From: Candidatus Jettenia sp. AMX2
Lineage (GTDB): Bacteria > Planctomycetota > Brocadiia > Brocadiales > Brocadiaceae
Assembly (NCBI GenBank): GCA_030583665.1
Contig: CP129469.1
Span: 2,967,043 to 3,031,042 of the forward strand
Direction: 5' to 3'
DNA length: 64,000 nt
Positions 22,735 through 44,338 of this stretch are shown here, piece after piece. The translations under genes were made by a program, and so were the position numbers. Positions within the stretch are counted from its first letter, which is position 1; every line of letters starts with the position of its first letter. A model generated the notes under the pieces. That model did no database searches and was not told the origin of the DNA. It saw only the letters and a program-made list of their open reading frames with translations.

Positions 22735-22935
22735 TTAATCTTTATATCCCACATGGTTCAGATGAAACCCGCAAATTTTGCATGACGGAGGGTCTTTATC
22801 TTTGTGGATATATTGGTTGTTATATTCGTAGTAATCTCCTACTTTAGAGCAATAGCCAAAGGTACATGGCCGCCCATCTTCCTTGTGGTAGTAGGTATGT
22901 CCGCCGCATTTAAAATCAACCCATCTTTTTCCCAT
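22735..22935 (-). CDS. Small Cys-rich ORF running into a CRISPR repeat
   Basis: 66 residues with a strong ribosome site (AAGGGGG) and a start one base after the stop of the disrupted upstream gene, so the pair was coupled. It has six Cys residues, including CKIC and TFGYC, suggesting metal binding. The last ten residues (FHLNHVGYKD) are coded by the isolated CRISPR repeat. The natural C-terminus was therefore probably lost when the repeat became adjacent. Function unknown. Confidence 0.45.
   Translation of the reverse strand: MGKRWVDFKCGGHTYYHKEDGRPCTFGYCSKVGDYYEYNNQYIHKDKDPPSCKICGFHLNHVGYKD
22740..22768 (-). repeat. Isolated CRISPR repeat 2.3 kb beyond the array
   Basis: One exact copy of the 29-base repeat, in the same orientation as the array at 25061-31709. 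The five bases beside it (TTAAT) also precede the first array repeat. The 2,292 bases between hold the IS3-family element and a small two-gene unit. It is either the former far end of the array or a stray duplicate. Confidence 0.85.
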
Positions 22936-23093: not shown

Positions 23094-24089
23094 TCACGAT
23101 AGTGTATTTTCCCGTTTTGGTTGATTAATCCATGCAGCCTGTGGTAAACGTGGAGGTTCAGGTACTTTTCCCTTGAACCGTTCCGGATGTTTTTCAAAAG
23201 CGGTCTTTAACACACGGCTTCGTTCTTTCACAATATGATCTGTACGTCCATAATGAACAGATTCGGGAGTAAAGAGTCCGATGCCTGAATGATAGTGTTC
23301 CGTATTGTACCAGAGAAAGAAATTCTTACAGAATATTCTGGAAGATTCAATAGAGGTAAAAAATCCAGGGAATTCAGGATGATACTTAAGGGTTTTAAAC
23401 TGTGATTCAGAATAGGGATTATCATTACTGACGTAAGGCCTGGAGTGGCTTTTTGTAATCCCCAGGTCAGAGAGCAGAAAGGCAACTGGTTTAGAAGTCA
23501 TACTTGATCCCCGGTCAGCATGAATAATCAGTTGTCCAGGTTGAATACCCTGTTTGTTGGCAGTCTCACGTATCAACCTTTCAGCCAGAGCCGCTTGTTC
23601 CCTGTGTGCAACCATCCAGCCGACCACATAGCGACTGAAGATGTCAAGGATCACATAGAGATAAAAATAACTCCATTTTGTTGGCCCTTTCAGTTTTGTG
23701 ATATCCCAGGACCATACCTGATTGGGAGCAGTTGCCAGGAGTTCAGGTTTCTGATATACGGGGTGACGTAACAGGTTTCTTCGTTCCCTTACCTCGTGGT
23801 GTTTTTCCAGGAGACGATACAGAGTTCTTACAGAACACAGATAGACCCCTTCATCCAGGAGGGTTGTATATACTTGCCGGGGAGACTTATCACAAAAACG
23901 CTCAGAGTGTAAGGTATCAAGTATGATGTGTTCCTCCGTGGGAGACAATGCCAGAGGTGGTTTTACCGTGATACGCCTTTGCTGAATATTTTTCTGGTAG
24001 TAGTAATAACTTGCCCGTGGGATGCCCAACGTTTCACAGGCATTTTTCATACGAATCTCTTTGGCAAGTGATTCAACGGCAAGCATCAT
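23094..24089 (-). CDS. IS3-family transposase OrfB (DDE)
   Basis: 331 residues. An N-terminal HTH_21-like region (CETLGIPRASYYYYQK) is followed by the retroviral-type integrase core. The DDE residues lie in WDITKLKG, IHADRGSSMTS and ESQFKTLKYHPEF. It ends with the C-terminal motif YNTEHYHSGIGLFTPESVHYG. It appears intact. It starts in the last four bases of orfA, so a coupled start or frameshift makes the active protein. Confidence 0.9.
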   Translation of the reverse strand: MMLAVESLAKEIRMKNACETLGIPRASYYYYQKNIQQRRITVKPPLALSPTEEHIILDTLHSERFCDKSPRQVYTTLLDEGVYLCSVRTLYRLLEKHHEVRERRNLLRHPVYQKPELLATAPNQVWSWDITKLKGPTKWSYFYLYVILDIFSRYVVGWMVAHREQAALAERLIRETANKQGIQPGQLIIHADRGSSMTSKPVAFLLSDLGITKSHSRPYVSNDNPYSESQFKTLKYHPEFPGFFTSIESSRIFCKNFFLWYNTEHYHSGIGLFTPESVHYGRTDHIVKERSRVLKTAFEKHPERFKGKVPEPPRLPQAAWINQPKRENTLS

Positions 24090-24574
24090 CTGTTTTCTCC
24101 TATCAGAGTGGAATGGATATTCAACATTTCTGAGATTTTTTTTTGAATCTCGATAATGGTTTCAGCCTGTTTGAGCCTTTGCTGAAGAGAATTAATTTCG
24201 CATTCAAGTTCTTTGATACGTCGTGCTGCCGGATCAGATTTTTTCTCCTTTGGTCCGCGTCGTTTTGGAGAAAGCGCCTCCAGGGTGCCACGTTCCAGTT
24301 GACGGCGCCAGGTAGTGAGATTAGACGAATAAAGACCTTCCCTTCTCAAGAGTGCTCCAATCTGCCCGAGATTTGTGCAGGCATCGGCCTCCCGAAGGAT
24401 GCGAATCTTATACTGTGCAGTAAACTTACGTCTTGCTGCTTTTTCTGACACCTCTGGGTCGGGGACACAATTGCCAGCAGGAGCGTTGGTGGAACCTCCG
24501 TTCGCCCTACGGGCTCTCTCCGGTTCCACCAACGCTTGTAAAGTATTTTCTTTGCTTTTCTCATTATTTTTCAT
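24086..24574 (-). CDS. IS3-family OrfA DNA-binding protein
   Basis: 162 residues. A helix-turn-helix domain (RKFTAQYKIRILREADACTN, GLYSSNLTTWRRQ) recognises the element ends. A C-terminal coiled coil (RRIKELECEINSLQQRLKQA) dimerises. A low-complexity N-terminal extension (about 1-45) rich in Glu, Arg and Ala is longer than usual. It precedes and overlaps orfB. Confidence 0.85.
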   Translation of the reverse strand: MKNNEKSKENTLQALVEPERARRANGGSTNAPAGNCVPDPEVSEKAARRKFTAQYKIRILREADACTNLGQIGALLRREGLYSSNLTTWRRQLERGTLEALSPKRRGPKEKKSDPAARRIKELECEINSLQQRLKQAETIIEIQKKISEMLNIHSTLIGENR

Positions 24575-25060: not shown

Positions 25061-28000
25061 CTTTATATCCCACATGGTTCAGATGAAACCTAATTCTCCA
25101 ATACTAAATTCAAGTGTCATCTTATCTTTATATCCCACATGGTTCAGATGAAACGCCTTTTTATATTCTTTTTCTATTTCTTCATTACTGGCTTTATATC
25201 CCACATGGTTCAGATGAAACCCGGGGTGTCGGGTTCGCCTTCTACCGTATAAGTAACTTTATATCCCACATGGTTCAGATGAAACGTTTTCGTTATTAAT
25301 ACTGAAATAGAGCTTGTTTTCCTTTATATCCCACATGGTTCAGATGAAACGCTACATTGCGCCCGATATGTATGCTGAAAGAAAAGCTTTATATCCCACA
25401 TGGTTCAGATGAAACGCAAAAATGAGAATTGACGGCGCAATCAAGGATTACTTTATATCCCACATGGTTCAGATGAAACTTGCCGATTGGCTCGCATTTC
25501 AAGCGATGACAAAAATCTTTATATCCCACATGGTTCAGATGAAACGATTAGCGAATTTGGAATATGCGAAGATATCTCATGCTTTATATCCCACATGGTT
25601 CAGATGAAACATGTCCCCTTTGTCAGCCCCAACATTCCCGCAAAACTTTATATCCCACATGGTTCAGATGAAACTGGAAGAAAGAACCGGGCAAGGGGCT
25701 GATCCCTGCAGCTTTATATCCCACATGGTTCAGATGAAACATTGATATTGCTTCCTGGATCTCAACAGACAGAAATACTTTATATCCCACATGGTTCAGA
25801 TGAAACTGAAACAATTAGACCGGTATACTGAAGCAGAATTAACTTTATATCCCACATGGTTCAGATGAAACCCTTTGCCACCGTTCCCATTTTTCAAAAT
25901 CTTCTTCCTTTATATCCCACATGGTTCAGATGAAACTTGTTAAATCTTTGTATATGTACTGACCGCTTGTCTTTATATCCCACATGGTTCAGATGAAACA
26001 TTAAACGAATATTACGCTCGCAGATTTTCAATGACTTTATATCCCACATGGTTCAGATGAAACAGTATTTCCCAGGAGATATAATCAACCGCCTCCATCC
26101 TTTATATCCCACATGGTTCAGATGAAACTGTACAACACATGTTAAGTGTTTTTATTGCGTAATTCTTTATATCCCACATGGTTCAGATGAAACGCGGGCG
26201 AGGAAATCCCTATCAATACACTCGGCAAACTTTATATCCCACATGGTTCAGATGAAACTGGAATGAAGCGCAGAGCAAGAACTTGCCTTATCTACCTTTA
26301 TATCCCACATGGTTCAGATGAAACCGTCTGGATATAAATACAACGGTATGTTCCCATTACTTTATATCCCACATGGTTCAGATGAAACCTTGCCCTGGCC
26401 GAAACTATCAATCAAAAAGTTTCACCTTTATATCCCACATGGTTCAGATGAAACGTTGCCAGTTCTGCCGATGTCATGGAAGCTATTTTACTTTATATCC
26501 CACATGGTTCAGATGAAACCGGTATATCGCCATACCGACGGGCTTACGGCGGTACCTTTATATCCCACATGGTTCAGATGAAACTGGGAAACGCAATAGC
26601 ATTCGGCAGCCTGTCACAACTTTATATCCCACATGGTTCAGATGAAACGAATCCTGAAGGTTGCAGAGTAAGATCTTTTTATTTCTTTATATCCCACATG
26701 GTTCAGATGAAACGCGGGAAGGAATATTGAAAACCAATACTTACACTACTTTATATCCCACATGGTTCAGATGAAACGGGTAGCCCCAGGAGCTGAAGAT
26801 GGCGGCTACGTACTTTATATCCCACATGGTTCAGATGAAACGCAAACCGGAAAGGCGTGGCCGACCTGGAGTTTCCCCTTTATATCCCACATGGTTCAGA
26901 TGAAACTCGGTAATGCGATCCGCTGCGGGACGGATGTAGAGCTTTATATCCCACATGGTTCAGATGAAACGAATCCTGAAGGTTGCAGAGTAAGATCTTT
27001 TTATTTCTTTATATCCCACATGGTTCAGATGAAACGCGGGAAGGAATATTGAAAACCAATACTTACACTACTTTATATCCCACATGGTTCAGATGAAACG
27101 GGTAGCCCCAGGAGCTGAAGATGGCGGCTACGTACTTTATATCCCACATGGTTCAGATGAAACATTCCGGTTTTTTGTTTATAATTAAGTTTTGATAACT
27201 TTATATCCCACATGGTTCAGATGAAACGCAAACCGGAAAGGCGCGGCCGACCTGGAGTTTCCCCTTTATATCCCACATGGTTCAGATGAAACTCGGTAAT
27301 GCGATCCGCTGCGGGACGGATGTAGAGCTTTATATCCCACATGGTTCAGATGAAACGATGTTATGGGAGATAACAAACAGACTAAATTACTCCTTTATAT
27401 CCCACATGGTTCAGATGAAACTTATTGATTTGTATGTGTTTGTTTATCTATCTTCACCTTTATATCCCACATGGTTCAGATGAAACATCGACTTCCTTGC
27501 CCAGGTTTACATCCGTATCCCCCTTTATATCCCACATGGTTCAGATGAAACTTCAGAGAAAAGTACCTCTGCTCCCTCCACTCAAAACTTTATATCCCAC
27601 ATGGTTCAGATGAAACCGAACAATTTTCTCAATGATGCGGTAGGTACAGAGCTTTATATCCCACATGGTTCAGATGAAACGTGGTAAGTGAGTCATATTC
27701 ATCAAGTAATGATACTCTTTATATCCCACATGGTTCAGATGAAACGCAGAAGGGCTGACAATTGCAACACGTCCTTCAGACTTTATATCCCACATGGTTC
27801 AGATGAAACAAGAGATATGAATAAGCGAACTGGATATTATTTTACCTTTATATCCCACATGGTTCAGATGAAACCTTCTACCCCGTAAATTGTAGCCCGT
27901 ATGGCATTATTACTTTATATCCCACATGGTTCAGATGAAACGATGTTAAAAGATTTTACAGAAGCGAGAATGCTAAACTTTATATCCCACATGGTTCAGA

Positions 28001-31000
28001 TGAAACAATCCCTTTGATGATTTTAAATCCGGCGGCAGCGGCCTTTATATCCCACATGGTTCAGATGAAACAGCTCTTTCCGGATGTGCTTCACTGCCAG
28101 ACCAAACTCTTTATATCCCACATGGTTCAGATGAAACGTTGTTACCGGAATCCAAGTCAAATGGCCTGTTTTCCTTTATATCCCACATGGTTCAGATGAA
28201 ACTTAGTCTAATCCCTTGTGTTGCGGTGTCATCTTCCCTTTATATCCCACATGGTTCAGATGAAACCTAGTCACAGAATTCAGGCGCAGAAAATTATTAC
28301 CTTTATATCCCACATGGTTCAGATGAAACTCGAAAAGATGACCATAGCCGCAGCGATCGGCATTCCTTTATATCCCACATGGTTCAGATGAAACTTTCTT
28401 ATGCTTCACTGCATCGATAATCGCCTTATCTTTATATCCCACATGGTTCAGATGAAACGTGCTTCACGAAGACGGCTCGGAGGTTGGGAAATCACTTTAT
28501 ATCCCACATGGTTCAGATGAAACGATAATTTGTATTATAGTAATACTATTTTTATTTAGCTTTATATCCCACATGGTTCAGATGAAACTGTAGGTAGGGT
28601 TTTTGATATACCTTTTAAAGACGCTTTATATCCCACATGGTTCAGATGAAACCAGGCTGAAAAAATTGGTTTTCCCCTCTTGTCTGTACTTTATATCCCA
28701 CATGGTTCAGATGAAACGGTTCAGGCAGCAGTCGAGTATAAACTCCATGGTGACTTTATATCCCACATGGTTCAGATGAAACTATATAGCTATGTTGGCC
28801 AGGCAGGAGTAACTAACGACTTTATATCCCACATGGTTCAGATGAAACGGTTCAGGCAGCAGTTGAGTACAAACTTCATGGTGACTTTATATCCCACATG
28901 GTTCAGATGAAACATATCTTCGGATGATAGTGTAATTTACTTTCAAAACTTTATATCCCACATGGTTCAGATGAAACACAATCATAATCATATATGTAAT
29001 GCAATAAGTAGGGCTTTATATCCCACATGGTTCAGATGAAACAAATATGATGGTTCATGAGGATTAATTTATATGATTCTTTATATCCCACATGGTTCAG
29101 ATGAAACTTATTATACCTTGGCCCATATATATTCCTACATGAGCTTTATATCCCACATGGTTCAGATGAAACTAATATGCGACAGGGGAATAATGGCAGA
29201 AATTACACTTTATATCCCACATGGTTCAGATGAAACTTATTGTCCCTGCTTTGTATCCCCCTTTTATTTCATCTTTATATCCCACATGGTTCAGATGAAA
29301 CATTTTGACCAAAACAAAATAAAACATGTAATTTTGGCTTTATATCCCACATGGTTCAGATGAAACCTGCTGGCTCGGGCGATGGTCAGTTCAATAGCCC
29401 CGACTTTATATCCCACATGGTTCAGATGAAACTCCTCCAATAAGTCTAATTGATTTTTTACCCATCCTTCTTTATATCCCACATGGTTCAGATGAAACTA
29501 TCATTTGTGCTACTAATTTTTCAATTTGTTTTTTCTTTATATCCCACATGGTTCAGATGAAACGGTGATCAATTTTTTGAGTACTATAAAATCCCAAAAG
29601 CTTTATATCCCACATGGTTCAGATGAAACCTTACCCCACACGCCGGCCCTTTTAAAAACATCAAACTTTATATCCCACATGGTTCAGATGAAACTATATG
29701 ATTTGGAAAAGATTGTTGGTTGTTCCGGGGCTTTATATCCCACATGGTTCAGATGAAACCCACCTCGGTCAAACAACCCAATATCTTATAAATAACTTTA
29801 TATCCCACATGGTTCAGATGAAACCTAAATGAGAATAACAGCATTATACAAGTCCTGGAGCTTTATATCCCACATGGTTCAGATGAAACATCTTCTTGCA
29901 TCCTTCCTGAAATTGTTTTTTAAACTTTATATCCCACATGGTTCAGATGAAACAATGATATGGGGTGTGAGCCGAGAGGATGTGGAATACTTTATATCCC
30001 ACATGGTTCAGATGAAACCTCCTCAAGAGCAGATTCTAAATCCGGTCTCTTTACCTTTATATCCCACATGGTTCAGATGAAACTTACCTCCATCCCCACA
30101 TCACTTCCCATATCAAGTATCTTTATATCCCACATGGTTCAGATGAAACCCCTTCAATAGTATCTGCCTTGCTGAAAATTCTTATCTTTATATCCCACAT
30201 GGTTCAGATGAAACATAGATATAATCCCCTTCATCGTCACTCAGGACTTCACTTTATATCCCACATGGTTCAGATGAAACCAAATACTATTTCTACGATA
30301 GCTGCTCAAATAGCTACTTTATATCCCACATGGTTCAGATGAAACTTTTTTCATCTCCGCAATGAGTAAGTGATGCGCAACTTTATATCCCACATGGTTC
30401 AGATGAAACGGACAGGGTGAAACACAACCCGGTCTTTTAGGAATGACTTTATATCCCACATGGTTCAGATGAAACCAGACAAAACACCAGATTGATATTT
30501 ATCAATCTCCCTTTATATCCCACATGGTTCAGATGAAACCTTACTCAAATACCATCATCGTCCGGGAATACAATCTTTATATCCCACATGGTTCAGATGA
30601 AACGAAGAGATTGATAGCTGGTTTGGGACACCATGGAAACACTTTATATCCCACATGGTTCAGATGAAACATGATTATCCCTCCAAGAATATTTCTTAGT
30701 GATGTGACTTTATATCCCACATGGTTCAGATGAAACCTTTTGCTTACAGAAGAAAAGATTTTGACGAATTAACTTTATATCCCACATGGTTCAGATGAAA
30801 CTCTTCAAATGAACAGCTTCCACCAACTGTCAATAATCTTTATATCCCACATGGTTCAGATGAAACTATGATATCAAATATTTCGTGGATAGAGACCTTT
30901 TGCTTTATATCCCACATGGTTCAGATGAAACTAAGCCTATTTCTCCAAAAATACCATTTACACTTTCTTTATATCCCACATGGTTCAGATGAAACCGAGC

Positions 31001-31709
31001 ATCTAAATTTCATTTTAATACTCATAAATATCTTTATATCCCACATGGTTCAGATGAAACGAAGAAAATGTTGGAAAAGGCTGTTGATTTGTATAACTTT
31101 ATATCCCACATGGTTCAGATGAAACAGGGTCTTCCATGACAATGACAGCAAGCATAGTCATCTTTATATCCCACATGGTTCAGATGAAACACAACTCAAT
31201 CAATGCCTCTTTATCAATTTCATCGGACTTTATATCCCACATGGTTCAGATGAAACGGAAATATTTGCTACCACAACCGGGGATATGGTAGACTTTATAT
31301 CCCACATGGTTCAGATGAAACGTAGATAAAAATGTGAGAGACAAACTTGAAAAATTATCTTTATATCCCACATGGTTCAGATGAAACAACACAACTTATG
31401 TATACTCCGTATCCCTTGCTTTCTTTATATCCCACATGGTTCAGATGAAACCCCAAAGACTTCCAATAACATATTGCTCATATGAATCTTTATATCCCAC
31501 ATGGTTCAGATGAAACAAATAAAGGAACTATTTACCCTTTCAAAATATAAAGCTTTATATCCCACATGGTTCAGATGAAACAGAGCATATAAAACAGACG
31601 ATACAGAATATATAGTCTTTATATCCCACATGGTTCAGATGAAACGATGTTATGGCGATATAGCTCGGTAGAATTTATTGCTTTATATCCCACATGGTTC
31701 AGATGAAAC
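25061..31709 (-). CRISPR. Type I-B CRISPR array, about 103 repeats
   Basis: By hand count there are 103 copies of a 29-base repeat and 102 spacers of about 34-37 bases. I noticed no variation among repeats. On the minus strand the repeat begins GTTTCATCTGAACC and ends ATATAAAG. This resembles the 29-base I-B repeat I recall from Clostridioides difficile (same GTTT start, TAAA end) at about two-thirds of positions. I therefore read transcription leftward from a leader at 31710-31915, beside cas2. New spacers should enter at the right end. Spacers include a duplicated block (26649-27327) and wobble variants (28718, 28849). Confidence 0.95.
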
Positions 31710-31915
31710 CCTTACTACCTGTCAATATAAATTGGCTCATTTGCCTTATAATAAGCCGTAATCAAGTCAATTGCATCTTCATATTTTGTATCATAAATCA
31801 GGTGTTTTTGCATTGAACCTTGAATCGTGTATTTTTCTTTTTAAAAAATTCATACATAAGTTTTTCTGCGCATATATCTTATACCTAATAATGTGCAAAT
31901 ACAGGTTTGATGCAA
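31710..31915 (-). promoter_or_regulatory. Probable CRISPR leader
   Basis: 206 AT-rich bases between the end of cas2 and the first repeat in the inferred direction of transcription, with no open frame. This position is usual for I-B leaders. The word TTGACA lies 19 bases before the first repeat and TTGACT further upstream. I cannot assign a promoter with confidence. Confidence 0.55.
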
Positions 31916-32182
31916 CTACAAAATATTTCCTGTCATTTCCTTTTCAATGCCAAGAACAACCTTACGGTAATTCAGCCTGTTTTCCAGGCTGTAAAAATAG
32001 ATGGAATCCTTATCGGTCTCGATAACATCGCGCAGTTCCACCTTACACTGCTCAAGCTTTCCCAGGGTTATATCCCCCTCAAAAACCGAATTTTGTACCC
32101 ACATGAAGTACTTCTTTAGTATTTTCCTTATTTTGTTGACCCTCTCTTCCCCAATATCGTAGGTAACAATTAAATACGGCAT
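31916..32182 (-). CDS. cas2: CRISPR adaptation nuclease-fold protein Cas2
   Basis: 88 residues with a ferredoxin-like fold: strand LIVTYDIG with the conserved Asp9, helix ERVNKIRKILKKYF, then WVQNSVFEG and the SIYFYSL strand. Cas2 dimers bridge two Cas1 dimers in the complex that inserts new spacers. It is the last gene of the cas group before the leader, 89 bases after cas1. Confidence 0.93.
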   Translation of the reverse strand: MPYLIVTYDIGEERVNKIRKILKKYFMWVQNSVFEGDITLGKLEQCKVELRDVIETDKDSIYFYSLENRLNYRKVVLGIEKEMTGNIL

Positions 32183-32271: not shown

Positions 32272-33252
32272 TCACCACCATGCCTTAAACGGAACGTAAA
32301 TCTCATCGCCAAGAAAATGTTTTATCAGCTTATAACACTCAAGCCTGATAAGCGTCCTGTACGAGACGTTCCTCTTTAATTTTCTGTGCTTGATAGTAGT
32401 TGTCAGTTTCTGATCAAACTCTTTGAGAAATTTCTTCCGGCCACCCTCATTCAAATAACAGTAATTGACATCTTCCTCAAAATCTTCAAGCTTTACCATA
32501 TTGTTATTCACCAGTTTGAAAATAATGGGATCAACAATAAGCGGCTTAAAAATCTCTGCTATATCAAGGCTCAAAGAGTATCGCCTTTCCCGTGGTTCAT
32601 GCAGATAACTTATTGTGGGGTTAAGCTGCGTGTGGTATATCTCAGAAAGCACGGTTGAATAGATCATGGAATTGCCGAACGATATCAGTGCATTAATGGG
32701 GTTGGTAGGCGGCCTTTTCTCGCGTTTTTCCATTATAAAATCCTCTTTCAGAATAGCATTGAACGCCTGATAATAAACATCTCTCGCCCGTCCTTCGCAT
32801 CCCATAAGTTCACTGATAGTTCTTGACTTGCTTGCATTGGCCTGTTCAGTCTCAATCTGTTTCCGGAAATCTACCGTATTTGAATATTCCCGTAAATTCC
32901 TTGCAATATGGAACATGGCGCCCTCAACAAAGGAAATGGCGACGAAGAAACGGTGTTCTGGATTAAGGTAATGTTCCACCTGCCTGACGGTCAATTCACC
33001 CGACACATTCCTGTCCCTTGGCATAAAACTACCGGCATAGAAACCGTAGTAGTTATAGATATGGACGGTCTTATTCTGCTGTGACAGGAAATTGAGCAGC
33101 TTTGTATTGAGGTCAACCTCTCCAAAGAGGTGGATCGTGTTAACATCCTCCACCGGAATAGCCTTTTTCTCACCCTTATCATTTTCGATATAAAGGGTAT
33201 TTTCCTGTCTTTTAATACGGCCGTTAGAAAATATGTAGTATGATCTGGTCAT
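32272..33252 (-). CDS. cas1: CRISPR integrase Cas1
   Basis: 326 residues. An N-terminal beta domain (about 1-75, with VHIYNYYGFYAGSF) is followed by the helical catalytic domain. The metal-binding residues are E153 (GCEGRAR), H218 (SYLHEPRERR) and D230 (LSLDIAEIFKP), all present. It catalyses spacer integration at the leader-repeat junction. The length is normal for subtype I-B. It lies between cas4 and cas2. Confidence 0.95.
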   Translation of the reverse strand: MTRSYYIFSNGRIKRQENTLYIENDKGEKKAIPVEDVNTIHLFGEVDLNTKLLNFLSQQNKTVHIYNYYGFYAGSFMPRDRNVSGELTVRQVEHYLNPEHRFFVAISFVEGAMFHIARNLREYSNTVDFRKQIETEQANASKSRTISELMGCEGRARDVYYQAFNAILKEDFIMEKREKRPPTNPINALISFGNSMIYSTVLSEIYHTQLNPTISYLHEPRERRYSLSLDIAEIFKPLIVDPIIFKLVNNNMVKLEDFEEDVNYCYLNEGGRKKFLKEFDQKLTTTIKHRKLKRNVSYRTLIRLECYKLIKHFLGDEIYVPFKAWW

Positions 33253-33413: not shown

Positions 33414-33932
33414 TTATCCCCAGCAAAATTCGTAATAGGCACATTTTGTACAATAAGGTTTTCGCTGCAGCGCCGGCGGTTTCTCCATTTCCAAAATCTC
33501 TTTCACACGTATCAGTGCCGTTTCTACCTCTTTTTCAGCTTCTGGGGTTAACACGACCTCCTCCCGTTTTCTCATTTTTGGATAATTAAGAACACCCCTC
33601 TTTTCAATACCCAGTTGCCTGAGATAATACAGGTAATAAAGTAACTGGATTCTGTCCGCATGTGCAAGTCTGTTGCTGTACTTAACTTCCCGGATCTCTT
33701 CATCGCCTGCAATATCGATATTAATAAGATTATCGATGAGCAATTCCCTCTTTTCCTCGCGCGGATACGAACTTTCACCAAGCAGCTTTCCCATCAGCAC
33801 CTTATCCGACCTGGATTCCATAGCAATCCCGAGGTCAAAAAGCCAGAGTTTCCGTTCGCAGACATAGAGATAATTGACCTTAATACCTGTGGTCTTCAGT
33901 GTTTGAAAGTCTGCATCTGTATTGGTACTCAT
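33414..33932 (-). CDS. cas4: CRISPR adaptation exonuclease Cas4
   Basis: 172 residues from the ATG with GAGGA upstream; the earlier in-frame ATG lacks a site. RecB-like nuclease motifs are D68, EVKYSNR (E82, K84) and the QLLYYLYYL helix. Four Cys (C25, C161, C164 and C170 in YCTKCAYYEFC) hold an iron-sulfur cluster. Cas4 trims prespacers and selects the PAM. It is separated from cas3 by the nucleotidyltransferase-HEPN cluster, which is unusual. Confidence 0.92.
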   Translation of the reverse strand: MSTNTDADFQTLKTTGIKVNYLYVCERKLWLFDLGIAMESRSDKVLMGKLLGESSYPREEKRELLIDNLINIDIAGDEEIREVKYSNRLAHADRIQLLYYLYYLRQLGIEKRGVLNYPKMRKREEVVLTPEAEKEVETALIRVKEILEMEKPPALQRKPYCTKCAYYEFCWG

Positions 33933-34061
33933 TGAATATCCTCTGCCGTTTTTCCTGTATAGGCACATTTAAAATAATACACTAACCGGTAGAGGGGACT
34001 TTTACTCTACCATCTGAAAAGAGGGGACAAGAATGTATCTCAAGATAACAAATGTTTAGCC

Positions 34062-34415
34062 TCATTTATCATATAAATCAGATAGCATTCTCTGAACTGT
34101 ATTCTCTAAAAGTAATAAATCATCTTCTTTTGTTTGCCAGATAATAGAAAGATCTAGTCCAAAATATTCGTGAATAAGTTTGTTCCTCATGCCAATTATT
34201 TCTTCCCACGGTATCTCTGAATATATCTCACGAATGTGTTTAGGAATCTTGTTTGCTGCTTCTCCGATAATCTCCAGGCATCTCACTACAGCCTTTACTG
34301 TCTTTCTGTCATTTATAAAATTCTCATAGGTCATCCCTTTAGTAAACGCTCTAATATCCATCAACGATTCAATTATGTCATTGAGATAATCCTGAATAAG
34401 CCTTTCTTCAGACAT
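34062..34415 (-). CDS. HepT-like HEPN toxin (pair 3)
   Basis: 117 residues from the ATG at 34415, which overlaps the end of the upstream nucleotidyltransferase gene by eight bases. An all-helical DUF86/HepT protein with the RNase motif RX4HXY intact: R77-NKLI-H82-E-Y84. In the studied HepT-MntA system the Tyr of this motif is AMPylated by MntA, which silences the RNase. All features needed for that are present here with the partner upstream. Confidence 0.82.
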   Translation of the reverse strand: MSEERLIQDYLNDIIESLMDIRAFTKGMTYENFINDRKTVKAVVRCLEIIGEAANKIPKHIREIYSEIPWEEIIGMRNKLIHEYFGLDLSIIWQTKEDDLLLLENTVQRMLSDLYDK

Positions 34416-35172
34416 ATTGAACCTCTTGAAGGATTCTTTTTCCAATATAAGGCTTCAAGGCTTTTTTTGTCACAAGGTCAACTTTTATTCCAAGTAATTC
34501 AGAAATACTATTTTCAAGCTGCATAAATTTTATAAATCCTATAGGCCTTTCAAATTCAACCAGAATATCTACATCGCTACTTTCATCTTGATCATCTCTG
34601 ACATACGAACCAAATATACCTATTTCCTTAATTCCATATTGTTTTTTCAGTTCGTCTTTGTGCTGGCTGATTATCTCTTTAATTTCCTCGAGTGTCTTCA
34701 TTATTACCTGAATATCCTCTCTGTCAAAGGTTCTGTAAAAGAAAATATTGGAAGGCTTCTCTGAATATCTCACAGCTTTCAGAAGTTCAGTGAAAACAAA
34801 TGTCTCAAAAATCGCAACCCTTCCTGCAAGGGTATCCGCTATGTCTTTATATGCCAGTATATTTGTTGAACCTGTCAAAAGGTAGCTCCCGTTCACCCTT
34901 TTCCGGTCTACGTTAAATTTGATCGCACTCAAAAGCTCCGGTACTTTCTGGATTTCATCAATGACAACCGGCTTTTTGAGACTGTTGATAAACAGATGGG
35001 GATCTGTCCGTGCAGAGGCATACACCACAATATCATCAAGGGTTATATAATTATCAAGCCTTGTTAAAGCGAGGGTGGATTTACCGACCTGCCTCGCCCC
35101 GGTCAGAAGGACTACGGGAAAATGCTTCATAGCATCAGAAAGTTGAGAGGAAATAGTTCGCGGGTAAAGCAT
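34408..35172 (-). CDS. Truncated DUF4143 ATPase fused to MntA nucleotidyltransferase (pair 3)
   Basis: 254 residues. Residues 1-150 are the AAA part of a DUF4143-type ATPase: Walker A GARQVGKST, Walker B VVIDEIQ and the sensor LLTGSTNI. The C-terminal DUF4143 domain is missing. Residues 158-254 form a complete MntA-type nucleotidyltransferase with GSX10DXD (GSYVRDDQDESSDVD). An internal ATG (34701) could start the nucleotidyltransferase alone. It is either a read-through remnant from a deletion or a genuine fusion. Translationally coupled to the HepT gene downstream. Confidence 0.8.
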   Translation of the reverse strand: MLYPRTISSQLSDAMKHFPVVLLTGARQVGKSTLALTRLDNYITLDDIVVYASARTDPHLFINSLKKPVVIDEIQKVPELLSAIKFNVDRKRVNGSYLLTGSTNILAYKDIADTLAGRVAIFETFVFTELLKAVRYSEKPSNIFFYRTFDREDIQVIMKTLEEIKEIISQHKDELKKQYGIKEIGIFGSYVRDDQDESSDVDILVEFERPIGFIKFMQLENSISELLGIKVDLVTKKALKPYIGKRILQEVQYV

Positions 35173-35246
35173 TTATACTCCTTGAATTTTTGGTATTATA
35201 ATACCATAATTTATAATACCATGTTCGAGAATGTAAAGGGTGTTTA

Positions 35247-35669
35247 TCACTTTTGGTTTTCAATAATCTCAAGAAGGGTTGTATAGAATTCTTTTATGTC
35301 GGACATCTCATTTGCGAGAATATCATAAAGCATCCCTGTATCTATATGATTATACAAATGAACAATCCTGTTTCTGAACTTAGACATATTTGTATAAACC
35401 TCTACCTTTTCTTTAGGTATATATCCCGCATCGGAAAGTATCTTGATTATCTCAGCATTTGTATTAGGCATTTTTAATCCAAGATTGGCAATTATGTAAC
35501 TTCCGATGTCAAGGAGCGCCTGTATAGATGTCTGCAAAAGGTAAAGAGAAGACGCAACATTCCTGAAGTCAGAGATAAAATCTTCATAATTCTTTTCCCT
35601 TAATATGCTTAATTTATTAAGGTTTTCTACAATAATATCTATCTTTGACTGAATATCTTCCTGTCTCAT
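35247..35669 (-). CDS. HepT-like HEPN toxin (pair 2)
   Basis: 140 residues, all helical, DUF86/HepT family. The motif R99-NRIV-H104-L-Y106 matches RX4HXY exactly. It starts four bases inside the end of the MntA gene upstream (ATGA-type overlap), giving coupled translation. The predicted activity is tRNA or mRNA cleavage unless AMPylated. It follows the same layout as the other pair but is clearly diverged in sequence, so it is not a recent duplicate. Confidence 0.83.
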   Translation of the reverse strand: MRQEDIQSKIDIIVENLNKLSILREKNYEDFISDFRNVASSLYLLQTSIQALLDIGSYIIANLGLKMPNTNAEIIKILSDAGYIPKEKVEVYTNMSKFRNRIVHLYNHIDTGMLYDILANEMSDIKEFYTTLLEIIENQK

Positions 35670-36088
35670 ATTTTTGCCAGTCTATTTTTTATCCCTTGAA
35701 AGTGAAATCTTTTAATAAATCTGATGGTCGGCTCAAAATCGCAGAAATATGAAATAGCTTTTGCAGTAAATTTTGTTCTGAATGCCGGGTCTGCATCATA
35801 TATCAATTTCCCTGTCCTTAAAACATTATATTGAAAAATAAGCCCCTGATTATTGAGTTCTATCAAATCTACTTCTCCTGCTTGTAAGGCGTCTTCAATC
35901 CTGTATGCCAGATAATCCATTTTGTGCATTAATTCCCTTCCCTCCGGGTGCGGCTCTTTGAGCAAAACGGCAATATCCACATCGCTCATCGGCCCTTTTT
36001 TGCCTGTCGCATACGAACCAAAAAGATATGCCGCAGCTATATATGGGTAATCTTTGAATATTGTTTTAAGTCTCTCTAAATCAAGCAT
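35666..36088 (-). CDS. MntA-type nucleotidyltransferase antitoxin (pair 2)
   Basis: 140 residues. GSX10DXD is intact (GSYATGKKGPMSDVD), followed by the third carboxylate region VDLIELN. A minimal nucleotidyltransferase of the MntA family, expected to AMPylate its HepT. The C-terminal 35 residues (IRFIKRFHFQGIKNRLAKI) are longer than the minimal domain. It starts ten bases after the HEPN gene of pair 1. Confidence 0.82.
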   Translation of the reverse strand: MLDLERLKTIFKDYPYIAAAYLFGSYATGKKGPMSDVDIAVLLKEPHPEGRELMHKMDYLAYRIEDALQAGEVDLIELNNQGLIFQYNVLRTGKLIYDADPAFRTKFTAKAISYFCDFEPTIRFIKRFHFQGIKNRLAKI

Positions 36089-36097
36089 TACAAACCT

Positions 36098-36936: not shown

Positions 36937-39126
36937 TCATATAATAAATACACCTTCACCCTGCTTATCCGTAAACTCTATTCCCTTCTCAAAAGAATAA
37001 CCAACATCGTGTAATATATAGATGTTATTCTTCGTGCAGTATTCTGAATCAGGTATAGGAGCTAAATATTTTTTAAATTTATCATATAATTGTACAGGAA
37101 CTGTAAATGCTTTTAGCTTGCTCTTGGCAAGGATTCTCTTTTGAATTTCTACATCTTTATTATCAATAATTTTTATCGACTCAGTAATTTCTTTTTCATT
37201 TTCTTCAAAAACAGGGCGGGGTATGACACAATAAGTAAACGAGATGTTCCTGAAGAGTTGTTCTGCCTCCGATTTAGATGCTGCCCTTAAGCCCAATTCA
37301 AGCAGGTCTTTATTCCTTTTATATTTTGCATAATAGTTTGTAGTTTCTATATCTTTGAATATCTCATTTATTGCACTTTGCTTATCATGTTCTGTCATTA
37401 TTTTCCCGTTGAAATTCCGGATCATCATTTTATAGGTTCTATTATTGAGTTCTGTGTCGTAGCCTTTAAAAGGTTCTGTCTTAAATATATGAATATTGGG
37501 AATTTCTCCATGATACTCTCTTTTTCTATAGCACCGGCCAAATCTCTGAAGCAGGCTGTCTATTGGCGAGCATTCAGTAAATAAGACATCGAAATCCAGA
37601 TCCAGGCTTGCCTCCACAACCTGCGTAGCTATCCAAATTATAGGTGGATGTTCGGGTTTATTTACAGCCATTATGCCTGCTGTTCTACTTTCCTTTAGTT
37701 GTCTGTCTTTCTGTATAAACCTTGAATGTATCAGTAAAGGACTAAAGTTTTGTAAAAGTTCATGCATCTCTTGTGCCCTTTTAACAGTATTGCATACAAT
37801 TAACACTTTTTTGCCTAATTTGAAACGTTGAACAATCATTTCCAATACCACATTATTATTAATAAATTCTTCATAGGTTGCAATTCTGTGTCGTTTAGTT
37901 GATGGTAATTCCGGGGCAGGAAATTCCATATTCTCAAGTTCGTTTAATTCATTTTTAATGAAAGGTGGTAATGTGGCTGTCATTAAAAGAAATTTACCAC
38001 CTAGCCTGTGAACCTCTTTAAGAAATACCATAATAGCAGCTATGGAATCTGGTGAAAAACTCTGAATTTCGTCAATCACAATTTTGGAATACGATGCCGT
38101 TAGGTATGGCAATTCAAAGCCATTATATTTAAAGACTGCAGTTACAAGCTGATCAGCAGTTGCAACAGTTATGGGAGCACAGAGTTTTCTTGCGGTTTCA
38201 ATCCGTTCAAAATAGTTTTCATCGGTATCGCCTTGCTCAAAGATATAACTTATTTCACCGTGTAAAAGTGCAACATTATTGCCAAAAATATCTATGAATC
38301 TTCTGTGCATTTCATTAACAGCAGTCCTTAATCCAAGCAGATAAAATGCCTTTTGCCCATTTATCCAATTCATTGAGTATTCTGTTTTTCCCATGCCTGT
38401 AGCTGCTATTAAAACAACATTTTTATTTAATAGTCTTTTCGCTCCATGTTGAAAAGGTCTCATCTCCCAACCCTGTTGAGATAGCCACTTGTTAAAGTCA
38501 GTCTCGTAGTCGCCTTGATAAGTCCTTTCAATCTCGATGCCTGCTGATGCTGTATAATCACACTTATGAAGTATTCCCTTTAAAAAAACTATTAGCTCAA
38601 AATAGTTTTTAAAGTTTGTTTGTGAATCAATTTTCTGCTTTATATCTTTTTTGATGTCATAGTCATAATTTAATGGATACTCAATTTCCAAACTTCCTTT
38701 ATTTTTCTCAAGATCAAAAAAGATAGTTTTTTCAACGGTTTCTTTATCAAAGTGTTTTTCTCTTACATGGTGAAAAGCAATGCAGTATTGGACAAGATCG
38801 GCAAAACGGATATTTTCATTACTAAAACTATTAAAGAACTTTTTGTCAACTTTGGAAATAAAAGCCAAGGACAGCCATTCATGAGGAATTTCAGGGTAGT
38901 CTTTAAGCTCTGGAATAAACCTCTTTTTCTCAATACCAAGTTTATTCTGAAATTTGTGATTCAGTTTGCCGAGGTCATGATAGTAAAGAATTTTCTTAAT
39001 GACTTCGTCGTATTTTCCTACTTTTTCTGAAGGAAGAACTTTCTTTAGTTTTTCATAACCTTCAATAAGTTTACGATTATGTTCTTCAATTGTTTCAACA
39101 GGTTTCGATTTGGCATAAATAGGCAT
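36937..39126 (-). CDS. cas3: Cas3 nuclease-helicase
   Basis: 729 residues. The N-terminal HD nuclease domain (about 1-200) has H16, H50-D51 (YYHDLGKLNHKF), H82, H119-H120 and D190. The superfamily 2 helicase has AATGMGKTE (241-249), VIDEIQSF, MTATLPP, and the C-terminal QVVEASLDLDFD and QRFGRCYRK. It unwinds and degrades DNA recruited by Cascade. The order HD then helicase is standard. It starts eight bases after cas5. Confidence 0.95.
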   Translation of the reverse strand: MPIYAKSKPVETIEEHNRKLIEGYEKLKKVLPSEKVGKYDEVIKKILYYHDLGKLNHKFQNKLGIEKKRFIPELKDYPEIPHEWLSLAFISKVDKKFFNSFSNENIRFADLVQYCIAFHHVREKHFDKETVEKTIFFDLEKNKGSLEIEYPLNYDYDIKKDIKQKIDSQTNFKNYFELIVFLKGILHKCDYTASAGIEIERTYQGDYETDFNKWLSQQGWEMRPFQHGAKRLLNKNVVLIAATGMGKTEYSMNWINGQKAFYLLGLRTAVNEMHRRFIDIFGNNVALLHGEISYIFEQGDTDENYFERIETARKLCAPITVATADQLVTAVFKYNGFELPYLTASYSKIVIDEIQSFSPDSIAAIMVFLKEVHRLGGKFLLMTATLPPFIKNELNELENMEFPAPELPSTKRHRIATYEEFINNNVVLEMIVQRFKLGKKVLIVCNTVKRAQEMHELLQNFSPLLIHSRFIQKDRQLKESRTAGIMAVNKPEHPPIIWIATQVVEASLDLDFDVLFTECSPIDSLLQRFGRCYRKREYHGEIPNIHIFKTEPFKGYDTELNNRTYKMMIRNFNGKIMTEHDKQSAINEIFKDIETTNYYAKYKRNKDLLELGLRAASKSEAEQLFRNISFTYCVIPRPVFEENEKEITESIKIIDNKDVEIQKRILAKSKLKAFTVPVQLYDKFKKYLAPIPDSEYCTKNNIYILHDVGYSFEKGIEFTDKQGEGVFII

Positions 39127-39134
39127 AGTTCTTA

Positions 39135-39848
39135 TTATATAGATAAAAAACTTATCGGATTGCCGTCACTGTCAGTGGTAAGATGGGGATAATCCTGAAT
39201 TTTATTACCTCTTGCAACATAAACGGCATCAACATACCTAAATATTCTTTTGTCATTAAAAGAATTCACAGGCTCATAATAGAAAGGAAGCCTGTAAAAA
39301 GTCCCTTCTATATGCTCATGCTTACAAATTTCAGGTTTGAGATATATGCTGTATTCAAGCCTGCACTCATTGCCTAATGATATAACATCAACAAGTTTTG
39401 TTTCCTCTGAATCCACACGGGCAATATCTTCGTTTCGGCCAAGTACGACGGTCTTTTGACTTACTGCCTCAAACAGTTTATCGTTTAAAGAATCATTATC
39501 AAAGGAAACATGCAGAAGGAGTTCCATATCAACAATTTCATCTACAAACATAACGCCATGAGTTGCAGTCTTTTGAGAGGTTCCGATTATTACATTATAG
39601 GGATTATTTGGCCTTGATGCTCTATCCCTGTCAAATTTGTAGACCTTTTGCATATTTGTGACTACTGATGCATAATTGCCCTGAACAGAAATTTTCATAT
39701 TGTGGTAACTATCTAAATCAAGAATAGCATGTGCCATGCCTTTTATCATAGACGGTGTTGGAAGCGGATATGTCTGTACATAGCCATAGCTCAATTCCAT
39801 TCTATAATTAACCATATTTTGATAAAGCTTTATCCTGACTGCTTTCAT
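39135..39848 (-). CDS. cas5: Cascade subunit Cas5
   Basis: 237 residues. The RAMP-type N-terminus (MKAVRIKLYQNMVNYRMELS), then TYPLPTPSMIKGMAHAIL with the conserved Pro-Ser-Lys-Gly, is characteristic of Cas5 of subtype I-B. It should bind the 5' handle of the crRNA. It overlaps cas7 by four bases at its start. Confidence 0.9.
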   Translation of the reverse strand: MKAVRIKLYQNMVNYRMELSYGYVQTYPLPTPSMIKGMAHAILDLDSYHNMKISVQGNYASVVTNMQKVYKFDRDRASRPNNPYNVIIGTSQKTATHGVMFVDEIVDMELLLHVSFDNDSLNDKLFEAVSQKTVVLGRNEDIARVDSEETKLVDVISLGNECRLEYSIYLKPEICKHEHIEGTFYRLPFYYEPVNSFNDKRIFRYVDAVYVARGNKIQDYPHLTTDSDGNPISFLSI

Positions 39849-40744
39849 TTTTTGACCTTGTAGAATTCGTCAACTTTATTTTTAATATTTCCAAAAAAAT
39901 CTTCTATTGTAAGCTTATTGGAAACATCAATACTCTCAACATTGGAAAACTCACTGTCAAGATAGCCCAAAATAGTTTGGTCTTTAACAGTATTCTCTAA
40001 AGTTTTTATGGTAAGAGTACTATTAATAAGTTTTTCATTAAGTAAAATTTTGTCTTTTGTGAATGAGAGTTTTACTCTGTTATAGAAGAAGGGGTTGCCA
40101 ACATCATATAATCCACCTATTATAAAAAGTGGTGAAAGATTTTCTCTTTTGCCTCTAATATCCCTGTGAAGAAGCTTTATGACATTAAGCAATTTTTTAA
40201 CTCTATCAGATCTTTCTAGTTCAGCTAAGGTTATTTGGTAAACAGTATCTACGCCGATTTCTTCGAGGTTGCAAGTTATGGTATAACAGTAATAAGAACG
40301 ATGGATTTCAGCCTGGAAAATATCATTGCCAATGTTGTTGGGTATCCTATCAGCGAGTCCCTTATTTGTTCCAAATTCCAATTCATTATAGAACGGCTCA
40401 AGACTAACTGCATCAGTAAGCCTGACTACAGCCTTTCTGATTTTATTGCTATCCTTAGTCTTCATATAGCCAAAAAAGTCTATTTCGGGGAAATCTTCAA
40501 TAGTAGCATCTTCAGCAAATTGAATGACACCGGCGTCTTTATTTACGTTGGTAAGTTTACATTTATACAACTCGTCAAGCATCCTCACAATGTCATATCG
40601 TAGTGCCTGTCTGCTTATGTATGAATAGTTTTTGCCCTCTGTTGTTACTTTTTTTAAAGTAAGAATATTTCCAACGCCCTCGCCATAGTTTAAATTTGAA
40701 GCCTTAAAAATAACTGCAAGGTGGAGATATTTATTATCTACCAT
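39845..40744 (-). CDS. cas7: Cascade backbone Cas7 (Cst2/DevR family)
   Basis: 299 residues. The N-terminal strand HLAVIFKASNLNYGEGVGN and SRQALRYDIVRML are typical of the Cst2/DevR group of Cas7. Repeated copies line the crRNA spacer in the I-B effector. It overlaps cas8 by seven bases and cas5 by four, so expression of these genes is tightly coupled. Confidence 0.9.
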   Translation of the reverse strand: MVDNKYLHLAVIFKASNLNYGEGVGNILTLKKVTTEGKNYSYISRQALRYDIVRMLDELYKCKLTNVNKDAGVIQFAEDATIEDFPEIDFFGYMKTKDSNKIRKAVVRLTDAVSLEPFYNELEFGTNKGLADRIPNNIGNDIFQAEIHRSYYCYTITCNLEEIGVDTVYQITLAELERSDRVKKLLNVIKLLHRDIRGKRENLSPLFIIGGLYDVGNPFFYNRVKLSFTKDKILLNEKLINSTLTIKTLENTVKDQTILGYLDSEFSNVESIDVSNKLTIEDFFGNIKNKVDEFYKVKK

Positions 40745-42378
40745 AATTGTTTATTCTCCTTTGTTTTGTTTGTATTTTCATTTTCTGCTGCCTTGGCTTT
40801 ACTCATCAAGCCATTGACAAATGAGTATCCAAACTGTAGAAAATAGTCATAATCAAGCATTTCATCCATACCAAAGAGATTTGGCTGATTGTTAGACATC
40901 ATTATCCTGATATACTTATCAAGGAATTTTTCCCGGTCTGCAATCTTCAGGTCGTTCAAAAAGCCATACACTAAACCATTGATTTGATTTTCTTTATCTT
41001 TTCTCAGTAATTCATTCCGCAGATCAATACCACTTTTGAACCCCTTTTTTACAATCGTTTGCCCTCTTCCTTTATCCATACCTCCCCCTCTTATCCATTG
41101 AATGTATTTAATGAGAAAATCTGCAACCTTGTACAGATTATATTTAACAGAATATCTTTCTGGACTTAAATAATAGATAAAATATATATAAAGCGTTGAA
41201 TAATCGATCTGTCGTTGAATTGCAAGCTTTAAGAGTTCCTCATCAATGCTGCAATAAGTTTTCTTTATCGTATAAGAACCTCTGGGGACACTGTCTGCTT
41301 GAAACTGCAAATCAAGAAATTCTGCAATATCAGGGCTTATATTGTAATTGTAAATATTATATCCTTTGGAGCTTTGTCCAGCCAATATAGGATTGTCAGC
41401 AATCTCAATAAAGTTTATGTTTTGTGTTATCTTCTGAGTCTGTTTAGACCTTATATGTCTGACTGTTTCCTTAACCATTGCATAGAGCAATTCATTACTA
41501 TTTTCAATATTCTCAAGCATGAGATTGAATACTCTTACTGTTTCAAAGAGTCCTTTCACATTTGTGTTTTCATTTGCAAAATAGAAATAATTCAAATAAT
41601 CTCCTTCGATCTTCTTTAAAATATAAGCGAAGGATGCGAAAGAGCAGTTATATATCAATGCACAAAGAGGACATAACTTAAGTTTTGAGGATTTATAGCC
41701 CCATATCCAGTTAGAGTTATCCTTATTAAAACCGATGATGTTAGAAACGGCATTGTTAAATTCATATTCTGCCTTTCTTTCCTGACAGGAAGGACATCGG
41801 TCATTATTTTTTAATTTCTTGGAGTAATCAAGAATTTTGATTCTGTTTATATACTCTGAAATACTGTCATAAGAACAAACGCCTTTAAACTTCCACGCAA
41901 TAAAATTATTCAGCGACTCATTCCCCTCTTGGTTGCATTTTAATGCTTCAAAAATTTGCGCTTTTGTAAAAGTTTTGACAGTATTCACGGCATTCTCAAG
42001 AATAGCTATAAGATCGTCAGTATTCTTATACTCATAAATTGGGATATTTAATAATTCCAAAAAATTTTTATAAGGCGATTTTTCAATATCAGCGATCTTT
42101 TTAGCAAGCTGTTCAGTTTTTATCTTGGATTTTTTATCGTTCAGTTCCTTGATGGATTTTTGTAATCGCTGAAGATACGCCTGAATGCTGAAAAATTTCA
42201 AAAACGCATGTTTTACGAACTTTTCCTCAAAACCTTCAAAAATGGTATTGTCAAATTCAATAAAGTTTTCACCGATAACCAATGATGGAATATTATCAAG
42301 TTCGTCTGATATAGTAGTCAAGAAACCTATAATCCCCGCATTAAAATACCAATTACGCAGGTATATTTTATGCATCAT
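40738..42378 (-). CDS. cas8: Large Cascade subunit Cas8 (Cst1, CXXC-CXXC)
   Basis: 546 residues. The N-terminus YLRNWYFNAGIIGFLTTI is the Cst1 signature, and two CxxC pairs (C195-C198 in CPSCQ, C236-C239 in CPLC) form the zinc site that names the family. It recognises the PAM in I-B Cascade. The start overlaps the end region of a tiny ORF that repeats the same N-terminal motif. The strong site GGAGGTGG precedes the ATG. Confidence 0.9.
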   Translation of the reverse strand: MMHKIYLRNWYFNAGIIGFLTTISDELDNIPSLVIGENFIEFDNTIFEGFEEKFVKHAFLKFFSIQAYLQRLQKSIKELNDKKSKIKTEQLAKKIADIEKSPYKNFLELLNIPIYEYKNTDDLIAILENAVNTVKTFTKAQIFEALKCNQEGNESLNNFIAWKFKGVCSYDSISEYINRIKILDYSKKLKNNDRCPSCQERKAEYEFNNAVSNIIGFNKDNSNWIWGYKSSKLKLCPLCALIYNCSFASFAYILKKIEGDYLNYFYFANENTNVKGLFETVRVFNLMLENIENSNELLYAMVKETVRHIRSKQTQKITQNINFIEIADNPILAGQSSKGYNIYNYNISPDIAEFLDLQFQADSVPRGSYTIKKTYCSIDEELLKLAIQRQIDYSTLYIYFIYYLSPERYSVKYNLYKVADFLIKYIQWIRGGGMDKGRGQTIVKKGFKSGIDLRNELLRKDKENQINGLVYGFLNDLKIADREKFLDKYIRIMMSNNQPNLFGMDEMLDYDYFLQFGYSFVNGLMSKAKAAENENTNKTKENKQLW

Positions 42379-43492: not shown

Positions 43493-44338
43493 TTATCTTA
43501 CCGCATCCACCATCCCGAATCCCTGTCCAGTTCTGAGTCCAATACCCACCTGATACAGGGTCTGGAGGTCTCTCGGGTCTCCTTTCAATATAAAGCAGCC
43601 CTGAAAGGTGGTAAGGGTCATATATGGCTTCCCGGTTTTTTCCCTGAACCCCCGCAAGGTATGTTTTACTACCTGCTTTTTAAGATTCATGGGTATAAAC
43701 TCGATTTCTCTGTATAATCCGTGTCCTTTTTTACCGTTTTCTGCCCTTATATCCTCTAAAATTCTGTTGTGTGTCTCGTTGAAGTGGTTATTAAAATACT
43801 GAAGGTTCAAGGGAGAAGGCTGAGGGATCGACGCCGAAGAATCATGGAATGGCAGTAATGGTTTGCCGTCTTTGTCTTCTATTAATACCGGGGAATTGGT
43901 TCTGAATGTGACTTCATTCCCGTTTATCTTTTTCTCGCTGAGCATGAAGACCTTTTCCAACTTAAGCATGATATCGTTTCCAAAACCAAATTCTTTCATG
44001 TTCAATAAGCCGTTATAGAGGTTCACGATAAATTGATAATCGGGAGAGCTTACAAAAAAAGAGATGAAACTTTCTGAAGTGAAATAAAAGACCGTGTCTT
44101 CGATCTTAAATGTGTCGTCTATTATTATTTTTTCTTTTTTGGAGGTTTTGCCGGAGGGAATGACTACGCTGAATGCAAAGGGTTTTACTTGCTTGGATTT
44201 ATCGGAGCCTTTGTCGGGATAGAGGAGTTGTCTATAACCCGCATCCGACCTGTCCAATGCCTCTTTTATCAGGGCCATAAAACGATGCCGGTAGAGGATG
44301 GGTAATTTACAGGCCTTAAAGGTTACTTTAATCCTAAT
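43493..44338 (-). CDS. cas6: CRISPR RNA endonuclease Cas6, ATT start
   Basis: 281 residues if read from ATT at 44336-44338. GGAGGA lies six bases upstream, and the N-terminal residues RIKVTFKACKLPILYRHRF fit the family start perfectly. The first in-frame ATG (44278) would cut off this strand. The C-terminal Gly-rich loop GIGLRTGQGFGMV is diagnostic. Cas6 cuts the repeat transcript to give crRNAs. An in-frame TAG lies two codons upstream of the ATT, so no longer version exists. It is the first gene of the cas group. Confidence 0.88.
   Translation of the reverse strand: MRIKVTFKACKLPILYRHRFMALIKEALDRSDAGYRQLLYPDKGSDKSKQVKPFAFSVVIPSGKTSKKEKIIIDDTFKIEDTVFYFTSESFISFFVSSPDYQFIVNLYNGLLNMKEFGFGNDIMLKLEKVFMLSEKKINGNEVTFRTNSPVLIEDKDGKPLLPFHDSSASIPQPSPLNLQYFNNHFNETHNRILEDIRAENGKKGHGLYREIEFIPMNLKKQVVKHTLRGFREKTGKPYMTLTTFQGCFILKGDPRDLQTLYQVGIGLRTGQGFGMVDAVR

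What the first reader, a model, noticed from the sequence alone, without database searches (positions are those of the whole stretch)
28718..28884. Two spacers record synonymous variants of one phage gene
Spacers 28718-28753 and 28849-28884 differ at three positions. All are C/T changes at the third base of codons in one frame, which in both reads VQAAVEYKLHG. The locus therefore sampled the same coding site from two related phages. The shared peptide can be used to find the phage protein.
Basis: seen in the sequence. Interest (0 to 1): 0.6.

Follow-up and report, generated by a model that had tools for sequence, protein, structure and literature searches.

The report
Two CRISPR spacers, one viral site
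An anammox bacterium's immune memory holds two near-identical snippets that look like two variants of the same viral gene site; this is an ordinary but well-recorded trace of repeated attack, and other snippets in the same memory match a provirus in a related bacterium.

Summary
Observation confirmed. Spacers 28718-28753 and 28849-28884 (nos. 57 and 59 of 102) of a type I-B CRISPR array differ at exactly three sites, all third-codon C/T changes; only one of six frames is open and synonymous (VQAAVEYKLHG). Alone this is weak: 5-9% of random triple changes would pass. Independent evidence makes the reading credible: three other spacers match a complete prophage in a same-family genome at 83-86% identity (490 controls: at most 73%), each with a 5'-CCN PAM, and 16 of their 17 differences are synonymous. 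So the array samples coding DNA of a temperate phage lineage whose sites drift silently. Duplication followed by mutation is unlikely: all 103 repeats are identical. The pair is best read as two acquisitions of one PAM-fixed site from two variants of a mobile element, probably such a phage. The differences lie outside the seed (crRNA positions 9, 15, 21). The protospacer itself was not found: the 11-residue peptide has no exact match in the viral or genome collections, and partial matches point to unrelated proteins, so it does not identify the gene. The kind of observation is known (Heidelberg 2009). The host carries hydrazine synthase, hence is an anammox bacterium.

The parts
28718..28753 (-). 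Spacer 57 from the left (C-T-C variant), the older of the pair; crRNA sense is the minus strand
28849..28884 (-). Spacer 59 (T-C-T variant), acquired two spacers later
28783..28819 (-). Spacer 58, between the two; target unknown
25061..31709 (-). CRISPR array: 103 identical 29-nt repeats, 102 spacers
25286..25321 (-). Spacer 4: matches the portal gene of the G168 prophage, 30/36 nt, 12/12 residues, PAM CCG
28330..28365 (-). Spacer 51: matches a head-region gene (phrog_24071) of the G168 prophage, 31/36 nt, PAM CCA, 4 synonymous and 1 Ile/Thr difference
28395..28429 (-). Spacer 52: matches the gene before the large terminase of the G168 prophage, 29/35 nt, 11/11 residues, PAM CCT
31710..31915 (-). 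Presumed leader between cas2 and the newest repeat
   Evidence: position beside cas2; altered repeats at the far end in the sister locus; PAM side
31916..32182 (-). cas2
32272..33252 (-). cas1 (type I-B)
33414..33968 (-). cas4
36937..39126 (-). cas3
39135..39848 (-). cas5
   Evidence: Cas5b model below its cut-off, general Cas5 model above
39845..40744 (-). cas7 (Cst2/DevR)
40738..42378 (-). cas8b1 (Cst1)
43493..44278 (-). cas6

Best explanation
The two spacers are separate acquisitions by a type I-B CRISPR-Cas system of one PAM-fixed 36-bp site in a protein-coding gene of a mobile element, most likely a temperate phage lineage that repeatedly infected this anammox bacterium. Between the two events the site had changed at three wobble positions. 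Because spacers are added at the cas2 side, the C-T-C variant (28718) entered first and the T-C-T variant (28849) two acquisitions later. Shown here: the array, its type, the two variants, the CCN PAM of three other spacers and their silent divergence from a real prophage. Inferred: the leader side (two agreeing lines of evidence), that the pair comes from the same kind of phage, that frame +2 is the gene, and that the older crRNA protected only in part, so that the variant was sampled again.
For: Identical spacer boundaries and three third-position synonymous transitions in the only frame that stays open. 103 identical repeats leave little room for three mutations in one spacer copy. Three of 98 distinct spacers match a complete same-family prophage at 83-86%, all with 5'-CC, against at most 73% in 490 controls; 16 of 17 differences synonymous, 0 of 20,000 random placements reach that. 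Spacers 51 and 52, both on that prophage, stand six places before the pair.
Against: The pair's own protospacer was not found in any collection searched, nor in the G168 prophage. The frame test alone has a 5-9% chance level. Same-site resampling is expected only if much of the array comes from one lineage or the site is preferred. No read data were available to exclude an assembly error.
Confidence: 0.83

Rival explanations
1. One acquisition, then duplication of the spacer inside the array and mutation of one copy.
For: A real block duplication of five spacers with one base difference exists in the same array.
Against: Three changes in 36 nt against zero in 2987 nt of repeats: P about 8e-6 at the upper 95% rate; 0.0012 with the rate of the duplicated spacers, 0.074 at that rate's upper bound. 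The copy would also have to skip one spacer, and mutation in an array has no reason to be synonymous.
Confidence: 0.06
2. Two acquisitions from variants of a non-coding site or another frame, the third-position pattern being chance.
For: 5-9% of random triple changes pass the test in some frame.
Against: Three of three placed spacers lie in genes and drift silently.
Confidence: 0.07
3. The two variants come from a plasmid or another mobile element and not from a phage.
For: The pair itself has no placed target; the peptide is unknown to the viral collection searched.
Against: All three placed spacers are on a prophage; the plasmid collection gave only one CRISPR-like region.
Confidence: 0.12
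4. The target is the hicB antitoxin gene of a phage related to the G168 prophage.
For: Best peptide counterpart in 80 kb, IQEAVECHLEG followed by E, 7 of 11, in a PF15919 protein of the prophage.
Against: Score 27 against 25 for the next match; 23 of 35 nt; no CC PAM at that place; K and H fit the family's helix poorly.
Confidence: 0.12

Closest known systems
Synechococcus mat CRISPR spacers against a viral lysozyme/lysin gene (Heidelberg et al. 2009, PMC2612747; abstract and passages read)
   Same: Spacer sites in a viral gene vary by silent or conservative changes, read as evasion of CRISPR with the protein kept.
   Different: There the variants were seen in virome reads; here they are two spacers of one array, and the viral gene is not known.
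Legionella type I-C primed acquisition (PMC5071653; passages read)
   Same: Two independently acquired spacers took the same protospacer.
   Different: An experiment with an identical plasmid template; no sequence variants.
Candidatus Kuenenia stuttgartiensis type I-B array (PMC7709395; abstract and section 11 read)
   Same: Long type I-B array in an anammox bacterium with growth at the leader end; spacers without outside match.
   Different: 30-bp repeat; none of 210 spacers had a perfect outside match; section 11 names no variant spacer pair and no prophage target.
Thermotoga maritima type I-B1 system (PMC13199841; passages read)
   Same: Cas8b1-type system; pyrimidine-rich PAM (YYD there, CCN in three of three cases here).
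   Different: Biochemistry of another host; the seed and mismatch tolerance are carried over by analogy only.

Membership tests
Type I-B CRISPR-Cas | Cas8b with Cas7, Cas5 and Cas3 of the subtype | tested here: met
   TIGR01908 Cas8b1 75.1 bits (cut-off 19.4), TIGR02585 Cas7 203.7 (72.75), Cas3 core 246.9 (102.45); the Cas5b model is below its cut-off (81.3 against 96.7), the general Cas5 model above
Type I-B CRISPR-Cas | Adaptation genes cas1, cas2, cas4 and processing gene cas6 | tested here: met
   all above cut-off; Cas1 is the I-B model at 470.1 bits (cut-off 304.1)
Type I-B CRISPR-Cas | Consistent PAM 5' of the protospacer | tested here: met
   CCA, CCG, CCT in three of three placed protospacers
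Spacer pair from variants of one protospacer | Same boundaries, few differences, not part of a block duplication | tested here: met
Spacer pair from variants of one protospacer | Both variants seen as protospacers in an element | tested here: not met
   no protospacer in any collection searched; the right metagenomes were not available
HicB antitoxin as target | Peptide fits the helix of the prophage HicB | tested here: inconclusive
   7 of 11 residues, small margin, PAM absent
Active interference and priming | Older crRNA acts on the newer variant | not testable with these tools
   needs an experiment

The most novel reading that the evidence does not exclude
The second spacer is a memory update: the older crRNA, which matches the variant throughout its seed but mismatches it at positions 9, 15 and 21, still engaged the escaping phage and primed adaptation, and the system re-took exactly the same protospacer in its new form. 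If the array came from many phages, same-site coincidence would be rare (0.001 to 0.06 expected pairs when 3-25% of 97 acquisitions are from one lineage), so a preferred site or targeted resampling would be needed.
Probability: 0.2. Interest if true: 0.55.

Novelty: new member of a known kind. Interest (0 to 1): 0.33.

Why it matters
Anammox bacteria do much of the nitrogen removal in some treatment plants, and as far as I recall their phages are hardly known. This array ties an anammox host to a concrete temperate phage lineage, gives the PAM (CCN) and strand of its CRISPR system, and suggests that the lineage was met more than once while its proteins stayed the same. That is a handle for recognising anammox phages in reactor metagenomes. 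The pair itself is a small example of silent change at a target followed by renewed immunity.

Tried and rejected
Peptide scans. Full 32-nt degenerate pattern: 0 in viral contigs, 0 in genome contigs, only the two array copies in the own genome. VQAAVEYK: 0 viral. VEYKLHG[DE]: 1 viral. EYKLHG[DE] with CTN leucine: 10 viral, none in the family of that first hit. QAAVEYK: 10 viral, 0 continue with LHG. A looser pattern, hydrophobic residues and K/R allowed to vary: 0 viral. VEYKLHG[DE] in genome contigs: 23 loci, 6 of them one Verrucomicrobial protein reading MV[HR]A[AG]VEYKLHGE.

Candidate genes dropped: (1) a small phage protein with N-terminal [ILV]EYK[LM]H (L003 and relatives; 57 loci): by my own estimate a single hit is about what chance gives for that pattern length. 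(2) The Verrucomicrobial protein: no Pfam match, no match in 33 of 33 same-family genomes nor in the phage records. (3) HicB of the G168 prophage: suggestive, not significant. (4) Hits with 3 mismatches in G151 and G302, and with 1 mismatch of the looser pattern in G302: the first in a 36-codon frame, the second in a 424-codon frame that I did not identify. With a CCN PAM the pair predicts VQAAVEYKLHG[DE]G; none of candidates 1-3 has that glycine.

Other dead ends: the whole array against phage records gave only E of 2 or worse; plasmids gave one CRISPR-like region. BLAST screens of same-family genomes are insensitive to 83% matches: whose query held spacers 51 and 52, did not list their known G168 sites among the rows shown, so BLAST negatives say little. 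The sister array in G153 shares no spacer.

Full report
Setting. Window 25061-31709 is a CRISPR array of 103 identical 29-nt repeats and 102 spacers. The cas operon to its right on the minus strand is type I-B: cas6, cas8b1, cas7, cas5, cas3, cas4, cas1, cas2. The genome is one contig of 3.46 Mb and encodes hydrazine synthase alpha twice (96.4 bits each, cut-off 26.6; 0 of 14 control genomes ring), so the host is an anammox bacterium; its species was not determined.

Orientation. A same-family genome, G153, has a sister locus with cas2-cas1 at 82% identity, a repeat one base different, and altered repeats at the end away from cas2. I therefore take the leader to be at 31710-31915, new spacers to enter at the right, and crRNA to be read from the minus strand. 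The PAM data below agree independently.

The pair. Spacers 57 (28718-28753) and 59 (28849-28884) differ at three of 36 positions, all transitions and all third-codon positions of frame +2, VQAAVEYKLHG in both. Counted from the PAM side of the crRNA the differences are at 9, 15 and 21, outside the seed; in the Thermotoga maritima I-B system the seed is positions 1-5 and 7, with 8 as boundary, and a mismatch at 9 bound like a full match (PMC13199841, passages read). The frame test is weak alone: 635 of 7140 triple transitions pass it in some frame, 5.2% when transversions are mixed in.

Not a mutated copy. The array has one real duplication, five spacers repeated with one difference in 177 nt and one extra spacer. 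Against zero changes in 2987 nt of repeats, three changes in 36 nt have P of about 8e-6 at the upper 95% rate; with the rate of the duplicated spacers P is 0.0012, and 0.074 at that rate's own upper bound. Repeats might be homogenised by recombination, so the first figure may flatter the case.

Protospacers for other spacers. A BLAST of the array against 33 same-family genomes gave a 36-nt match of spacer 4 in G168, which lies in a portal gene. I fetched 80 kb around it and compared all 98 distinct spacers. Three stand out: spacers 51 (86%), 4 (83%) and 52 (83%); the next best is 69% and the best of 490 control queries (98 reversed, 392 shuffled) is 73%. The three have CCA, CCG and CCT immediately 5' in crRNA sense; the other nine of the twelve rows printed do not have CC there. 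Within genes 16 of 17 differences are synonymous and one is Ile/Thr; random placement gives 4.4 on average and at most 12 in 20,000 trials. The region is a complete-looking prophage with an S24 repressor, primase, late activator, a hicA-like gene and hicB, large terminase, portal, cement protein, tape measure, tail proteins and a tyrosine integrase (the hicA label is recalled, not from a call). Its portal protein was found in 1 of 33 same-family genomes, with distant relatives in 6 phage records, the best at 35% identity. So this array recorded a temperate phage lineage more than once (spacer 4, later 51-52), and its sites vary silently. That is what the pair shows.

Search for the pair's own target. 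It was not found: viral contigs and genome contigs for the full peptide; 294 genomes of the phylum, 33 of the family and 75 of the class with up to three pattern mismatches (overlapping sets); 62 of the order with a looser pattern; the looser pattern in viral contigs. Outside the array these genome searches hit only G151 and G302, once each, neither convincing. Shorter peptide scans gave scattered matches in unrelated proteins. The best counterpart in the G168 prophage is the helix of HicB, IQEAVECHLEG followed by E (7 of 11), top of the list by a small margin; it is a lead and no more. The CCN PAM sharpens the prediction to VQAAVEYKLHG[DE]G.

How likely is hitting the same site twice? A 38.7-kb phage like this one has 4711 CC sites on both strands; 97 acquisitions all from one such lineage would give about one same-site pair, a quarter of them 0.06, three of 97 only 0.001. 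Shifted overlaps of 15 nt or more would be expected 5.1 times if all were from one lineage and 0.32 times for a quarter; none was seen with a score of 15 or more. So either a good share of the array comes from one lineage, or the site is preferred, or the older spacer primed its own renewal. The data do not decide.

Known or new. Silent variants in protospacers and repeated acquisition of one protospacer are both described (PMC2612747, abstract and passages; PMC5071653, passages). For anammox bacteria, section 11 of the Kuenenia study reports type I-B arrays with none of 210 spacers perfectly matched outside. My six literature searches showed no title or opening of an abstract that reports prophage targets of anammox CRISPR arrays; that is a statement about those listings only. 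This is a new instance of a known kind; the useful by-product is the link to a phage lineage and the PAM.

Noticed in passing
window 26649-27327: Block duplication of five spacers (26649-26941 = 26971-27327), with one extra spacer (27164-27198) in the second copy and one T/C difference (spacers 26842 and 27228).
   Followed up: partly
window 22740-22768: A single exact repeat 2.3 kb left of the array, forming the 3' end of a small minus-strand frame; an IS3-like transposase pair (23094-24574) lies between it and the array.
   Followed up: partly
window 34062-36720: Several nucleotidyltransferase and HepT-like genes (MNT/HEPN type) sit between cas3 and cas4.
   Followed up: no
window 26064-26099 and 29695-29730: Two spacers whose translations align as WRRLIISPG and WKRLLVVPG (score 38; best of three shuffled sets 32): perhaps one protein site from two diverged elements.
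   Followed up: no
L003 1217-1492 and 57 IMG/VR loci: A family of small phage proteins (about 90-115 aa) with N-terminal [ILV]EYK[LM]H and W[IV]EDGGYF; members tested had no Pfam or PHROG match.
   Followed up: partly
L026 (G153 C7:28000-47900): Sister type I-B locus with a repeat one base different, a short array of 8 spacers and scattered single repeats to its left.
   Followed up: partly
window 29367-29403: Spacer with translation AGSGDGQFNSP resembling an NHL-repeat-like site of the G168 prophage (AGSGNGQFNTL, 8 of 11 residues, 21 of 37 nt), without a CC PAM there.
   Followed up: no
G000 C1:383159-383473 and C1:1143185-1143499: Two copies of a hydrazine synthase alpha domain with equal scores in the host genome.
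   Followed up: no
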